From positions 2,418,001-2,482,000 of the forward strand of contig NZ_AP018052.1 in NCBI RefSeq assembly GCF_002356355.1: DNA of 64,000 nucleotides, given 5' to 3'. The notes under the pieces are model-generated. The model had not been told where the DNA came from and did not search any database. It saw nothing but the letters and a program-made list of their open reading frames with translations. Each line of letters begins with the position of its first letter. The first letter of the stretch is position 1. Shown here one piece after another: positions 3,429-9,996 of the stretch. The stretch comes from Thiohalobacter thiocyanaticus (GTDB taxonomy: Bacteria > Pseudomonadota > Gammaproteobacteria > Thiohalobacterales > Thiohalobacteraceae). The position numbers and the translations under genes were made by a program.

Positions 3429-5564
3429 ATGCGCGAACACAGACAATACTGGAAACTGCTGGCGGCGGCGGCCGTGGTCGCCACCCTGGTCACCCTGGTC
3501 CTGACAGCCAAGTCACTGCTCGATTTCACCCGCACCGGGCCCGAGATCCGCGGCGAGATCCTGGACTCCTACAGTAGCTATGCCGCCCTTGCCATGCTGC
3601 GGCTGGCCGCCTGGACCTGGCTGATCTCATTCGCCCTGGCCAGCGTGGGCAGCGTAATCCATCTCGCCCGCTGCCAGAGCCATGGCCGCCCGGTCCGTTT
3701 CCTGCCGGCACTGATCTGGGCCGGGCTGGCCTGGAGCATCATCACCGGTGCCCTGTTCCTGCATCTGCTGCTCTACAACCCCTCCGGGATCATCGCCTCC
3801 TTCCTCTACGATCCGGCCAGGCTGTACCCGGTCTGGGATCTGCTCACCCCGACGCGGCTTACCCTGCTTCAGATCCTGATCATCGGGCTGCTGGGACTGG
3901 CCCTGCTGAGCGGCATCATGGCCGGACGCCGCCGCGGTGCCGTGGGCACCGCACGCTTTCTGACCGCCTACGCGATCGCCGGCGCCGCCCTGTACCTGGG
4001 GTTGAACTATCACCCTGAGCCGGTCAGCCACGGCCTGCAGGCCGGCACCACGACGCCGCGCATGAACCTGTTGATGATCGGCTCGGACACCCTGCGCGCC
4101 GACCGTTTCAGCGTCACCGGCTACGCGCGCGAACTCACCCCCTACATCGACGACCTGGCCCGCGAAGGCACCTTCTTCACCCAGGCCTATGTCCCGGTCG
4201 CCCGCACCGCGCCCAGCCTGGCGAGCATGCTCACCGGCGCCTGGCCGCAGCGCACCGGCATCCGCAGCAACTACATCGGGGATCCCGAGACCCGGCTTCC
4301 GGCGACCGGTCTGCCCGAACTGCTCAGCCGTGCCGGCTACCATACCGCCGCCGTCGGCGACTGGGCCGGCGGCGATCTGGCCAAGCTCAGCTTCGGCTAC
4401 CGGAAGACCGACCTGCCGGAGGACCAGTGGAATATCAAATTTCTCATCCGCCAGGGCCCGAAGGACATCCGGCTGTTCCTGAGCCTGTTCGCCCACAACC
4501 CGCTGGGCAAGCGCCTGCTGCCCGAGATCTATTACCTCGCCGGCTTTCCCATCTATACCGAGATCACCTACAAGGCCAGGCAGCTGCTGAGCGAATACGC
4601 CGCCGGGGATCGCCCCTTTCACCTGAACGTGTTCATGGGTGCGACCCATGCGCCCTTCGGCTCGGAATACCCCTATTACAAGATGTTTGCGGCCGGGGAC
4701 TATTACGGCGATTCCAAGTTCGCGCTGTCCGGCCTGACCGACCCCTCCTCCATCATCAAGCGCCAGGAGCAGGGCAAGGAGGCCTTCGATATCCAGCAGG
4801 TGATCGACCTCTACGACGGCGCGGTCAGGAGCTTCGATGATCAGGTCCGCGCCATTGTCGAGCACCTGGAATCACTGGGCCTGCGCGACAACACCCTGAT
4901 CGTCATCTACAGCGATCACGGCACCGACCTGTTCGAGCGCCACACCTGGGGCCAGGGCAACAGCGTGGTCGGGGACGACCCCAGCGCCCGCATCCCGATA
5001 TTGATCCTGGATCCACGCCACCGCGACGGCCGGGCGGTACACCGCACCGTGCGCAGCGTGGACCTCATGCCCACCCTGCTGGAACTGCTTGAGCTTCCGG
5101 TACCTGAATCGGTGGACGGCGTCTCGCTTGCCGGCTACCTGCAGCAGGCGGATTTCGATCTCGACCTGCCCGCCTTCCACGAGACCGGCGTCTGGCTGGG
5201 ACAGATCCCCGGACTGCAGGACAATCACCTGCAATATCCGCCGCTGCTGGAGATGCTGGAGGTGCCGGACAAGCACACCGGCACGCTCGCGATCAAGCCG
5301 GAGTACCGGAGCCGGGTGATTCAGGCCAAGGACCGCATGATCCGCACCGACAAATGGAAACTGGTCTACCTGCCCATGCGCGACGGCGCCGAGTACTGGC
5401 TGTTCGACATCGAGAACGACCCGCTGTGCTATGACAACGTCATCGACGAATATCCGCAGGTCGCGGCCCGGCTGAAGCGGGAACTGATCGAATGGATGTC
5501 GCTGGAACCCGGTATGGAATGGGACGGCCAGTTGCTGCAGCCGCGGGCGGCGGGGAACGGATAG
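3429..5564 (+). CDS. Membrane-anchored sulfatase/phosphotransferase superfamily protein
   Basis: The 711-residue protein has about five N-terminal membrane helices (roughly residues 8-195) and a large catalytic domain from about residue 212. Metal-site motifs are present: GSDTLRADR near residues 216-224 and SDHGTD near residues 495-500. At the nucleophile position the sequence is RTAPSLASMLTG, with Thr260 where classical sulfatases have Cys or Ser, and Leu in place of the conserved Arg of CxPxR. Thr nucleophiles are found in related phosphoethanolamine and phosphoglycerol transferases (EptA, LtaS types), which also carry N-terminal membrane helices. I therefore favour a transferase or hydrolase acting on phospho- or sulfo-esters of envelope glycans over a formylglycine sulfatase. 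No strong ribosome site precedes the ATG. Confidence 0.75.
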   Translation: MREHRQYWKLLAAAAVVATLVTLVLTAKSLLDFTRTGPEIRGEILDSYSSYAALAMLRLAAWTWLISFALASVGSVIHLARCQSHGRPVRFLPALIWAGLAWSIITGALFLHLLLYNPSGIIASFLYDPARLYPVWDLLTPTRLTLLQILIIGLLGLALLSGIMAGRRRGAVGTARFLTAYAIAGAALYLGLNYHPEPVSHGLQAGTTTPRMNLLMIGSDTLRADRFSVTGYARELTPYIDDLAREGTFFTQAYVPVARTAPSLASMLTGAWPQRTGIRSNYIGDPETRLPATGLPELLSRAGYHTAAVGDWAGGDLAKLSFGYRKTDLPEDQWNIKFLIRQGPKDIRLFLSLFAHNPLGKRLLPEIYYLAGFPIYTEITYKARQLLSEYAAGDRPFHLNVFMGATHAPFGSEYPYYKMFAAGDYYGDSKFALSGLTDPSSIIKRQEQGKEAFDIQQVIDLYDGAVRSFDDQVRAIVEHLESLGLRDNTLIVIYSDHGTDLFERHTWGQGNSVVGDDPSARIPILILDPRHRDGRAVHRTVRSVDLMPTLLELLELPVPESVDGVSLAGYLQQADFDLDLPAFHETGVWLGQIPGLQDNHLQYPPLLEMLEVPDKHTGTLAIKPEYRSRVIQAKDRMIRTDKWKLVYLPMRDGAEYWLFDIENDPLCYDNVIDEYPQVAARLKRELIEWMSLEPGMEWDGQLLQPRAAGNG

Positions 5565-5572
5565 GGATGACA

Positions 5573-5590
5573 GCGGCCCGGACGGGCCGC
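5573..5590. terminator. GC-rich hairpin between convergent genes
   Basis: GCGGCCC, loop GGAC, GGGCCGC lies between the ends of the sulfatase-like gene and the ferritin-like gene. Neither strand has a U-tract, so termination is only a guess from position. Confidence 0.35.
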
Positions 5591-5603
5591 CGCGGATTCA
5601 GGA

Positions 5604-5891
5604 TCAGTCGTGCGCGATGGGCTTGTCGGTGAACAGGTAGTCGCGCAGTTCCTCGTCGAACTTGGGATCGCGCCGGCGGATCCATTCCAGAACCATGGCG
5701 GCGTGTTCCTTCTCCTCGTCGCGGTTGTGCTTGAGAATGGCGCGCAGCTCGTCGTCCTTGCAGGCGGTGACCCGCTGGTTGTACCAGTCCACCGCTTCCA
5801 GTTCCTCCATCAGGGAGGTGATGGCGCGATGCATATCGCGGGTCTCGTCATCCAGTTCCTCGACAGGTTCATGGTAACCTTCGTTCGCCAC
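5604..5891 (-). CDS. Encapsulated-ferritin-type (EncFtn) iron-storage protein
   Basis: With a GTG start at 5891, preceded by AAGGAG at good spacing, the product is 95 residues; an ATG 60 bases further upstream has no such site. The two-helix sequence closely resembles the Rhodospirillum rubrum encapsulated ferritin. Its metal-site residues appear conserved in order: Glu29, Glu30, Glu32, Trp36, Glu59, Glu60 and His63, each offset by two from the R. rubrum numbering I recall. Family members make annular decamers with ferroxidase sites at dimer interfaces and normally work inside an encapsulin shell. Here the protein ends at DKPIAHD with no tail resembling an encapsulin-targeting peptide, and no encapsulin gene lies nearby. 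The neighbouring suf operon is also iron-related but diverges from it. Confidence 0.88.
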   Translation of the reverse strand: MANEGYHEPVEELDDETRDMHRAITSLMEELEAVDWYNQRVTACKDDELRAILKHNRDEEKEHAAMVLEWIRRRDPKFDEELRDYLFTDKPIAHD

Positions 5892-6156
5892 GCTGTTTCT
5901 CCTTCGCTGGTTTTCGGACAATGGGATCGGGGCACCCGATCGTGCGGCCATCCTACCCCATCCGGTGAAAACCGGACAATCAACTCCCCGACCGACGTCC
6001 GACAGCTTGCGATACTGCGGCTGACAGCGTTAATATAATAAAGTTACCGGCACGGTCCCGCCCGCTCAGGGGTAACAAACTCCCAGCCAGCCGGGAAAGC
6101 CCGTCTCCCGCAGGTCCAAGTCACTGTTTTTCCGACACCCAATCCCCACCGGAAAT

Positions 6157-6181
6157 AATGTTGACTATTTTGGTCAACAAT
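6157..6181 (+). promoter_or_regulatory. IscR-like (type 1) operator upstream of suf
   Basis: The core GTTGACTATTTTGGTCAAC is a near-perfect palindrome with arms GTTGAC/GTCAAC. Aligned by eye with the type 1 IscR consensus (25 positions), 21 agree, including the GACT and AGTC-like half sites. IscR with an Fe-S cluster binds such sites to repress, so the operon should rise under iron limitation or oxidative stress. The regulator gene is not in the window. Confidence 0.6.
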
Positions 6182-6190
6182 TATTAGAAT
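6161..6190 (+). promoter_or_regulatory. Predicted sigma-70 promoter of the suf operon
   Basis: TTGACT (6161-6166) and TAGAAT (6185-6190) are separated by 18 bases. The -35 box lies inside the IscR-like palindrome, an arrangement that fits repression by occlusion. Confidence 0.5.
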
Positions 6191-6414
6191 ACCCGACCAA
6201 TTAGCTAAGGAAATTCGTCGGGGCCCGACACCCGGGAACCCACCGGAAAGTGGCAAAAATTGTACAATCCGGCTGGGATTCACCGTCGTCGCGAGACGAC
6301 AGGACCGCGCCGCCGACCGCAACGGCCCCCCTGAACCAGGCCGGGCCCGGGCCAGCATCTTAAAGCAGGCAGCACCGAACACGCATCGGGTCTGCCGGGA
6401 GAGGAGCTCAATCG

Positions 6415-7860
<1,446 letters not shown>

Positions 7861-7894
7861 ACCGAACCCGGATTAACGCAGGAGGATTATCAAC

Positions 7895-8650
7895 ATGCTG
7901 CTTTCTATCAAGGATCTCACGGTCGACGTCGACGGCCAGCCCATCCTCAAGGGCCTGAACCTGGAGGTCAACGCCGGCGAGGTGCACGCCATCATGGGCC
8001 CCAACGGCTCCGGCAAGAGCACCCTCGCCCATGTCCTGTCCGGCCGCGACGGCTACGAGGTCACCGGCGGCGAGGTCAGGTTCGAGGATCAGGACCTGCT
8101 CGACCTGGAGGTCGAGGAGCGCGCCCGCAAGGGCCTGTTCCTGGCCATGCAGTACCCGGTGGAGCTGCCCGGCGTGAACAACACCGTGTTCCTGCGCGAA
8201 TCGCTGAATGCCATCCGCGCCGAACGCGGCGAGCCGGCGCTGAGCGCCGTTGATTTCATGAAGCTGATGCAGGAGAAGCTCAAGATCGTCGAGATGAAGC
8301 CCGACCTGCTCAAGCGCTCGGTCAATGCCGGCTTCTCCGGCGGTGAGAAGAAACGCAACGAGATCCTGCAGATGGCCGTGCTGGAGCCGAAACTGGCCAT
8401 CCTGGACGAGACCGACTCGGGTCTGGACATCGACGCCCTGCGCATCGTCGCCGACGGGGTCAACGCCCTGCGCAGCCCCGAGCGCGGCATGATCCTGGTG
8501 ACCCACTACCAGCGTCTGCTCGACTACATCGAGCCGGACTTCGTCCATGTGCTGGCCAACGGCAGGATCATCCGCTCGGGTGACAAGTCGCTGGCCCTGG
8601 AACTGGAAGAGAAGGGCTACAACTGGGTCCTCGAGGAGGCCGCGGCATGA
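7895..8650 (+). CDS. sufC: Fe-S assembly ATPase SufC
   Basis: This is an ABC-type ATPase of 251 residues with Walker A GPNGSGKST (residues 35-43), the SufC-type signature FSGGEKKRNEI and Walker B LAILDETDSGLD. It is cytosolic and drives conformational change in SufBC2D rather than membrane transport. AGGAGG precedes the start. Its last codons overlap the sufD start by four bases (ATGA), implying translational coupling. Confidence 0.98.
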   Translation: MLLSIKDLTVDVDGQPILKGLNLEVNAGEVHAIMGPNGSGKSTLAHVLSGRDGYEVTGGEVRFEDQDLLDLEVEERARKGLFLAMQYPVELPGVNNTVFLRESLNAIRAERGEPALSAVDFMKLMQEKLKIVEMKPDLLKRSVNAGFSGGEKKRNEILQMAVLEPKLAILDETDSGLDIDALRIVADGVNALRSPERGMILVTHYQRLLDYIEPDFVHVLANGRIIRSGDKSLALELEEKGYNWVLEEAAA

Positions 8651-9996
8651 GCGAGGCCCTCAAGCCTGTCGAGCACTACCGCGAGCTGATCGACGCCGCG
8701 CGGTCGACGCTGCCGGGCGCCGGCCAGCAGTGGCTGGAGACGCGCCGCCAGGCCGCGGCCGCCCGGTTCGAGGAACAGGGCTTTCCCACCCGCAAGGCCG
8801 AGGAGTGGCGCTACAGCAACATCGGCCAGGTGCTGGAACAGCCGTTCCGCTACCGCGACGAGGCCTTCGAGGCCCTGACCGACTCCGACATCGACGAGCT
8901 GCTGCTGGTGGAACAGCCCGCGGCCCGGCTGGTGTTCGCCAACGGTCGGCTGGTGCCGCACCTGTCGGCCACCGGCGGCCTGGACAGCGCCGTCAGCCTG
9001 ATCAGCCTGCGCGATGCCATCGACAGTGACAGCGACTTCGTCGATCAGTGGCTGGGCAAGGCCATCATCGACAATGACCTGGAGACCTTCGAGGCCCTGA
9101 ACACGGCCCTGCTCAACGACGGCATGTGCCTGTACATCCCGGCCGGGGTCGCCATCGAACAGCCCATCGAGGTGCTGTACCTGTCGGTGGGCCTGGACGA
9201 GCCCAGCGTGATGACGCCGCGCAACCTGATCGTGCTGGACCAGGGCGCCAGCGCCCGGCTGGTCGAGCAGTACGCCAGTACCACCGACGCGGCCTACTTC
9301 AACAACGGCCTGACCGAGATCATGCTCGGCGAGGACGCCGAACTGGAGCATGACCGGCTGCAGGACGAGGCCGCCCAGGCCTATCACATGAGCGTGATCC
9401 ACCTGGCCCAGGCCGCGCGCAGCCGCTATCGCGGCATGGTGGCCAGCCTCGGCGGCACCTGGGCGCGCACCGAGTACCACACCGCATTCAGCGCCGAGGA
9501 AGCCAACTGCGAACTGGCCGGCTTCTACTTCGCCGGCGACGGCCAGCTCACCGACATCCATCTGGATGTACGCCACCCGGTGCCGCGCTGCAACAGCGAG
9601 CAGAAGTTCAAGGGCATCCTGGCCGGCAGGGGCAAGGCGGTGCTGGACGGTCGCATCCGCGTGATCCAGGACGCCCAGCAGACCGAGGCGCACCTGTCCA
9701 ACGACACCCTGCTGCTGTCGCGCAGCGCCGAGGTCGACACCAAGCCACAGCTGGAGATCTTCGCCGACGACGTCAAGTGCAGTCACGGCACCACGGTCGG
9801 TCAGCTGGATCCGATGCAGTTGTTCTACCTGCGCGCCCGCGGCATCAATGCCGACACCGCCCGCAAGATGCTGTGCCTGGGTTTTGCCGACGAGGTGCTG
9901 GAAAGCTGTACGGTACCTGCCTTCATCGAGCGGGTCGACCAGAAGCTGCAGCATCGGCTGGCCGATGTGAACATCGACACGACCGCCAGCGGTTAA
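8647..9996 (+). CDS. sufD: Fe-S cluster assembly protein SufD
   Basis: The 449-residue protein aligns with SufD: a divergent N-terminal helical region followed by the SufB/SufD core, including the typical motifs RKAEEWRYSN, DVRHPVPRCNSEQKFKGIL and LCLGFADEVLE. It completes the SufBC2D scaffold. Normally a sufS cysteine desulfurase gene would be expected after it, but sufT starts only 26 bases downstream. Confidence 0.97.
   Translation: MSEALKPVEHYRELIDAARSTLPGAGQQWLETRRQAAAARFEEQGFPTRKAEEWRYSNIGQVLEQPFRYRDEAFEALTDSDIDELLLVEQPAARLVFANGRLVPHLSATGGLDSAVSLISLRDAIDSDSDFVDQWLGKAIIDNDLETFEALNTALLNDGMCLYIPAGVAIEQPIEVLYLSVGLDEPSVMTPRNLIVLDQGASARLVEQYASTTDAAYFNNGLTEIMLGEDAELEHDRLQDEAAQAYHMSVIHLAQAARSRYRGMVASLGGTWARTEYHTAFSAEEANCELAGFYFAGDGQLTDIHLDVRHPVPRCNSEQKFKGILAGRGKAVLDGRIRVIQDAQQTEAHLSNDTLLLSRSAEVDTKPQLEIFADDVKCSHGTTVGQLDPMQLFYLRARGINADTARKMLCLGFADEVLESCTVPAFIERVDQKLQHRLADVNIDTTASG

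What the first reader, a model, noticed from the sequence alone, without database searches (positions are those of the whole stretch)
5604..5891. Encapsulated-ferritin-type protein without encapsulin or targeting tail
All metal-site residues of EncFtn appear present, but the protein stops right after the core and no shell gene is adjacent. Known members work as cargo. This one may be targeted by another route, use a distant shell, or act free in the cytosol next to Fe-S assembly genes.
Basis: partly seen in the sequence, partly recalled or inferred. Interest (0 to 1): 0.52.

Follow-up and report, generated by a model that had tools for sequence, protein, structure and literature searches.

The report
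Shell-free bacterial iron-oxidising ferritin relative
This small iron-oxidising protein belongs to a family famous as cargo of protein shells, but it and many relatives lack the shell address tag and their genomes mostly lack the shell; in several relatives its gene sits instead inside an operon thought to destroy hydrogen peroxide.

Summary
The gene (GTG 5891 to stop 5604, minus strand, 95 aa) encodes a complete EncFtn core with every ferroxidase ligand and no targeting tail. It is neither broken nor unique. Its best match is Nitrosomonas europaea NE0167 (PDB 3K6C, also 95 aa), which a 2024 review already classes as 's-FLP'. That review lists LFTD(E/N)KPIAHE as a putative, untested targeting peptide.

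The evidence here argues against cargo. The window's complete genome has no encapsulin hit. In 274 evenly drawn genomes of its class, 14 of 14 genomes with tailed EncFtn have the family 1 shell gene, next to or fused with it; of 66 with tail-less EncFtn, 4 have that shell, each with its own tailed or fused EncFtn. The 'LFT..I' segment is also in tailed EncFtn, so it is core.

New lead: in 20 of 65 class loci (18 families) the tail-less gene lies in or beside the operon of aerobic-type rubrerythrin, its Fe-S oxidoreductase (RFO) and DUF3501, usually between RFO and DUF3501. The genomes also co-occur (47/66 against 72/208). I found no paper linking the two. The window genome has that operon, unlinked.

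Most likely role: a free cytosolic ferroxidase serving peroxide/iron defence. Function is inferred, not shown.

The parts
5604..5891 (-). Tail-less EncFtn (s-FLP) gene, 95 aa, GTG start; two long antiparallel helices (15-43, 47-74), a short helix 76-85 and an unstructured 10-residue end
5899..5904 (-). Ribosome-binding-site-like AAGGAG, 7 bases upstream of the GTG
   Evidence: sequence; CAGG-AGAA is the only upstream dyad shared by at least 10 of 123 lone loci
5571..5592 (-). G+C-rich hairpin (9 pairs, -18.7 kcal/mol) just after the stop, no T run; fits a gene end here, not a hidden tail
6415..9996 (+). Divergent sufB-sufC-sufD; a neighbour, probably not part of the system (not conserved next to the gene)
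3429..5564 (+). Convergent membrane-anchored sulfatase-like gene; a neighbour, not part of the system

Best explanation
The gene encodes a free, cytosolic EncFtn-type ferroxidase of the tail-less (s-FLP) class, not an encapsulin cargo. It probably forms the ring-shaped decamer of this fold (inferred from NE0167/3K6C), with di-iron centres at dimer interfaces (residues shown, activity inferred) that oxidise Fe2+ with O2 or H2O2. Having no shell and no closed cavity, it cannot store mineral, so it is best read as an iron/peroxide-stress enzyme. It disarms Fenton iron and hands Fe3+ on to the cell's own cages (the genome has three further PF00210 ferritin-superfamily proteins, one Dps-like and one Bfr-like by profile). 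It works alongside the aerobic-type rubrerythrin system RBR-RFO-DUF3501, with which its gene shares an operon in many relatives (link shown; biochemical role inferred).
For: Identity, fold and ligands. No shell in own genome. Class sample of 274 genomes: tailed EncFtn and PF04454 coincide in 14 of 14 genomes with no exception either way; tail-less and PF04454 are unrelated (4/66 against 10/208, p=0.75) and all 4 have a separate tailed or fused EncFtn. Family 2 shells: 2 of the 66. Phylum sample of 299: 2 of 17 tail-less genomes have PF04454 over cut-off, on another contig or about 2 Mb away; 2 of 2 tailed have it adjacent. Rubrerythrin link: 20 of 65 class loci lie in or beside RBR/RFO/DUF3501, all same strand; in 16 the gene lies between RFO (or RBR) and DUF3501, 5-66 bases before DUF3501. 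DUF3501 adjacency 19 of 66 genomes in 17 families against 0 of 14 tailed (p=0.03). Co-occurrence with DUF3501 47/66 against 72/208 (p=2e-7), still 28/47 when unlinked (p=0.003); by family 41/53 against 40/118 if 171 families; phylum sample 5/17 against 12/282 (p=0.001). Own genome: RBR, RFO and DUF3501 at L162 4424-7277 and other ferritins.
Against: Only 2 of the 80 nearest homologues, and not the window itself, are linked to the rubrerythrin operon. 19 of 66 tail-less genomes lack DUF3501 and 72 DUF3501 genomes lack the gene, so neither strictly needs the other; shared ecology could give part of the co-occurrence. No activity, assembly or localisation was tested. No shared operator was found upstream. 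DUF3501 and RFO have no proven function.
Confidence: 0.62

Rival explanations
1. It is encapsulin cargo after all, loaded through its short C-terminus (the putative peptide LFTD(E/N)KPIAHE) into an unlinked or unrecognised shell.
For: A 2024 review lists this stretch as a putative peptide and argues that encapsulation is sterically possible (PMC11202242, passages). 4 of 66 class genomes and 2 of 17 phylum-sample genomes with a tail-less gene have a PF04454 shell.
Against: No shell hit in the window genome or in 60 of 66 tail-less class genomes (PF04454 and PF19307). The 4 class genomes with PF04454 each have a tailed EncFtn next to, or an EncFtn fused with, the shell. The LFT..I part is conserved in tailed EncFtn as well, so it is core; only the final His is specific (52 of 65 against 1 of 14).
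Confidence: 0.06
2. An iron-delivery protein for the adjacent SUF Fe-S assembly machinery.
For: sufBCD lies divergently 523 bases away in the window.
Against: SufB and SufD homologues are near the gene in 0 of 145 other loci; SufC hits there (8 loci, E about 1e-8 to 1e-18) look like general ABC ATPases.
Confidence: 0.08
3. A metallation or structural partner of rubrerythrin (iron loader or mixed complex) rather than an independent ferroxidase.
For: Operon position between RFO and DUF3501. In G181 a rubrerythrin copy that has lost the Glu/His of its ExxH-type motifs, the only copy found there, sits 50 bases before an intact tail-less gene, with no DUF3501 hit in that genome.
Against: 19 of 66 tail-less genomes have no DUF3501 at all, so many must work without this operon; no physical interaction is known.
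Confidence: 0.2
4. A lineage relic: a former cargo protein that lost its tail and shell and is decaying.
For: Two partial or broken hits exist in the class sample (G002, G027).
Against: Length near 95 aa, all metal ligands and a class-specific Cys44 (62 of 65) are strongly conserved across 53 families; operon gaps of a few bases.
Confidence: 0.02

Closest known systems
NE0167 of Nitrosomonas europaea (PDB 3K6C), the 's-FLP' class of PMC11202242
   Same: 95 aa, about 80% identity over full length, no targeting peptide, ends LFT(D/N)KPIAH(D/E)
   Different: Nothing substantial. Here the function question is addressed by co-occurrence and operon context, which that review leaves open
R. rubrum EncFtn Rru_A0973 (5DA5) and H. 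ochraceum EncFtn (5N5F)
   Same: Fold (TM-score to query about 0.9) and all ferroxidase residues; about 66% and 59% identity
   Different: These have a disordered tail with targeting peptide and an encapsulin gene; the window protein has neither
Aerobic-type rubrerythrin system RBR-RFO-DUF3501 (Cardenas et al. 2016, PMC5114695)
   Same: Operon partner in 20 of 65 class loci; present in the window genome at another place
   Different: The published three-gene system does not name an EncFtn component ('encapsul' occurs 0 times in the text; passages read); its Figure 3 has unnamed 'HYP' genes that I could not see
Dps / bacterioferritin
   Same: Iron oxidation as protection against peroxide is the shared presumed task
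   Different: Those form closed cages that store mineral; EncFtn rings cannot (PMC8229669 passage)

Membership tests
EncFtn-like family (PF22277 / TIGR04535) | Profile score over the curated cut-off | tested here: met
   152.4 against 27 bits; 138.3 against 125 bits
EncFtn-like family (PF22277 / TIGR04535) | Two-helix half-ferritin fold with the Glu/Glu/His ferroxidase ligands | tested here: met
   model pLDDT 93, best PDB match 3K6C, residues invariant
EncFtn-like family (PF22277 / TIGR04535) | Annular decamer, metal-dependent assembly, ferroxidase activity | not testable with these tools
   inferred from 3K6C (10 chains; decamer per PMC11202242) and R. rubrum EncFtn
Encapsulin cargo (family 1) | C-terminal targeting peptide | tested here: not met
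   stops at residue 95; no motif in three frames downstream; 80 of 80 nearest relatives are also 94-101 aa without a tail
Encapsulin cargo (family 1) | Encapsulin gene in the genome, normally adjacent | tested here: not met
   0 hits with PF04454 in the complete genome, control rang in 3 of 14
s-FLP class (PMC11202242) | About 95 aa, no long disordered tail or targeting peptide | tested here: met
Component of the aerobic-type rubrerythrin system | Gene linked to RBR/RFO/DUF3501 | tested here: inconclusive
   20 of 65 class loci and 2 of 80 nearest loci linked; the window gene itself is not, though the operon is in its genome
Component of the aerobic-type rubrerythrin system | Physical or functional dependence | not testable with these tools
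   needs genetics or biochemistry

The most novel reading that the evidence does not exclude
Tail-less EncFtn is an unrecognised fourth component of the aerobic-type rubrerythrin peroxide-reducing system: a shell-free ferroxidase ring, with a class-specific cysteine (C44) at the helix turn, that handles the iron of (or exchanges iron or electrons with) rubrerythrin, its HdrD/GlpC-like reductase RFO and DUF3501. EncFtn would thus have a main role in Proteobacteria unrelated to encapsulins.
Probability: 0.45. Interest if true: 0.7.

Novelty: new member of a known kind. Interest (0 to 1): 0.5.

Why it matters
The field names this family 'encapsulated ferritin', and NCBI's profile calls this protein 'encapsulin-associated'. 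The survey suggests that in this class most genomes with such a gene carry it without a shell, so the annotation misleads. It also bears on a question left open in print (is the s-FLP end a targeting peptide?) with strong evidence against. Finally, it offers a testable partner, a peroxide-defence operon with two proteins of unproven role.

Tried and rejected
Cryptic tail by frameshift: three frames downstream read, nothing. Distant shell in the own genome: none found. The PF19307 search rang in none of its 14 controls, so I ran it over the class, where it rang in 5 of 274, 2 of them tail-less genomes (G074, G136). Conserved neighbourhood by all-against-all comparison of ORFs: no neighbour in more than about 20 of 146 tail-less loci; frames overlapping the gene itself were discounted. 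This is how the rubrerythrin operon was noticed. Suf link: not conserved. Shared upstream operator: none beyond the ribosome-binding site (strict threshold, a weak motif could be missed). Plasmids: 7 of 72,556 records with relatives, none above 80% identity. Phages: none. Tree: tail-less proteins fall together (80 rows, SH-aLRT 85) except L156, with operon-linked and lone copies interspersed; few columns, most forks unresolved (95 rows, a subset of the 160 proteins in hand), so I do not claim the order of events.

Rows dropped before counts. In the class sample 79 of 274 genomes score over the PF22277 cut-off; I counted the 76 with full-length hits and left out G002 (partial, 41.9 bits), G027 (partial frame with two TGA) and G087 (27.0 bits), plus G093, G211 and G265, below the cut-off. 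81 full-length copies; 79 were fetched and read (65 tail-less, 14 tailed), the window's own was read in the window, and a third G247 copy was not fetched. Loci cut by contig ends count as misses for linkage. The nearest-80 set and the G samples overlap: L057 and L104 look like one record; probably also L080/L113 and L052/L163. The family-level test assumes 171 families (165 and 175 also tried).

Full report
What is there. Window 5604-5891 (minus) is an intact gene for a 95-aa protein: GTG start, AAGGAG upstream, a G+C-rich hairpin after the stop. The longer ORF from 5951 is less likely, because 80 of 80 nearest homologues begin at the GTG position. It scores over the cut-offs of TIGR04535 and PF22277. 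The nearest solved structure is 3K6C, Nitrosomonas europaea NE0167, also 95 aa and matched end to end. An AlphaFold2 model (pLDDT 93) gives two long helices and a short one; residue 44 lies at the turn and residues 86-95 are outside the helices. Foldseek returns 3K6C first (81% identity), then R. rubrum and H. ochraceum EncFtn.

Known status. A 2024 review (PMC11202242; passages and part of the reference list read) names this class s-FLP and says it was first classed as non-encapsulated (citing Giessen and Silver 2017, which I did not see). It notes the decameric crystal structure, calls it unclear whether the last 10 residues bind a shell, and lists LFTD(E/N)KPIAHE as putative. So the tail-less form is not new; its relation to shells was open.

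Test of the cargo idea. The own genome (one contig, 100% complete) has a single EncFtn, no PF04454 hit with the control ringing and no PF19307 hit, a search silent in its controls. In 274 evenly drawn genomes of the class, 79 pass PF22277 and 14 pass PF04454. Reading 79 fetched copies gives 65 tail-less proteins (91-103 aa, except L130 with 122) and 14 tailed ones (one of them, L160, fused to part of a shell protein). Adding the window gives 66 tail-less genomes. All 14 shell genomes carry a tailed or fused EncFtn and vice versa; the places show it beside the shell gene. Tail-less status is unrelated to PF04454 (4/66 against 10/208, p=0.75), and those 4 (G014, G196, G236, G247) each have the tailed or fused partner too. 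PF19307 shells occur in 5 of 274, 2 of them tail-less genomes. In a phylum sample of 299 genomes (sharing some genomes with the first), 19 pass PF22277 and 5 pass PF04454. 17 are tail-less; 2 of these (G315, G335, a diverged type) have an unlinked PF04454 gene.

The putative peptide. At the columns of the putative peptide the 'LFT...I' part is also conserved in the 14 tailed proteins, which carry their own separate tail. Specific to tail-less proteins are the final His (52 of 65 against 1 of 14), Cys44 (62 of 65 against 5 of 14), and Arg57 and Asp58 (64 of 65 each against 3 of 14).

The rubrerythrin operon. A neighbour search over 146 tail-less loci brought up a rubrerythrin and a CCG-domain Fe-S protein; Pfam names the operon proteins PF02915, PF02754 and PF12007. 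Queries with these proteins find at least one near the gene in 20 of 65 class loci but only 2 of 80 nearest homologues. Gene order: 14 class loci read RBR-RFO-[gene]-DUF3501, one RFO-[gene]-DUF3501, one RBR-[gene]-DUF3501; in 3 the gene follows DUF3501, and in one only RBR is present; always same strand. One of 15 further tail-less loci of the phylum sample is linked as well (L168). DUF3501 is within 3 kb of the gene in 19 of 66 genomes, 17 families. Genome-level association: 47/66 against 72/208 (p=2e-7); unlinked genomes alone 28/47 (p=0.003). The phylum sample agrees: 5/17 against 12/282 (p=0.001; 4/15 against 11/280 without shared genomes that I recognised, p=0.004).

In the window genome the operon is at 1.26 Mb: RBR, RFO and DUF3501, followed by one more ORF and then a parE-like ORF (parE is named from recall). 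In several relatives the tail-less gene sits in an operon that is likewise followed by the parE-like gene. The genome also has a Dps-like and a Bfr-like protein and a third PF00210 protein.

Literature on the partner. Cardenas et al. 2016 (PMC5114695, passages) define RBR-RFO-DUF3501 as an aerobic-type rubrerythrin lineage for peroxide defence. They state that Nitrosomonas has RFO and DUF3501 fused, so the organism of 3K6C belongs to a genus with this system. PMC7050145, PMC7852563 and PMC7760498 (passages) repeat the three-gene system; none mentions EncFtn in the passages shown. No paper in the held library contains both DUF3501 and encapsulin; wider searches showed no link in their listings. 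The library lacks most subscription journals and preprints, and Cardenas Figure 3 has unnamed 'HYP' genes, so prior notice of the gene cannot be excluded.

Mechanism. Shown: intact ferroxidase ligands, no tail, no shell hit, operon linkage in many relatives. Inferred: decamer, Fe2+ oxidation, cytosolic location, service to peroxide/iron defence. EncFtn rings cannot store mineral by themselves (PMC8229669 passage), so a shell-free ring must pass Fe3+ on, act on peroxide, or serve a partner. The linkage favours the last two. Against a strict partnership stand the unlinked majority, the 19 tail-less genomes without DUF3501 and the 72 DUF3501 genomes without the gene.

Verdict. An ordinary, well-conserved member of a known class, with one open question largely answered and one apparently new functional link to test.

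Noticed in passing
L111 5519-5935 (genome G181): A rubrerythrin copy that has lost the Glu/His residues of its ExxH-type motifs (54% identity to the intact one) sits 50 bases before an intact tail-less EncFtn; it is the only rubrerythrin match found in that genome, which also has no DUF3501 hit.
   Followed up: partly
L160 5480-6226 (genome G196): EncFtn fused in frame to only the C-terminal half of an encapsulin (PF04454 positions 116-252) in a relative of the window's class; the genome also has a tail-less EncFtn in the rubrerythrin operon.
   Followed up: no
L130 5896-6264 (genome G074): A member of the tail-less clade with a 27-residue Lys/Ala/Pro-rich tail and no targeting motif; the genome has a family 2 (PF19307) encapsulin on another contig.
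   Followed up: no
L175-L178: Diverged 104-aa EncFtn relatives in four genomes of one genus (g296), PF22277 about 84 bits, tail-less; two of the four genomes have an unlinked PF04454 encapsulin.
   Followed up: no
window 6080-6230: Promoter-like and terminator-like matches in the sufB leader, more than in shuffles (2 against 0.2 and 3 against 0.7).
   Followed up: no
L161 5986-6111 (genome G002): A short EncFtn remnant frame (41 aa, C-terminal half only), perhaps a broken gene.
   Followed up: no
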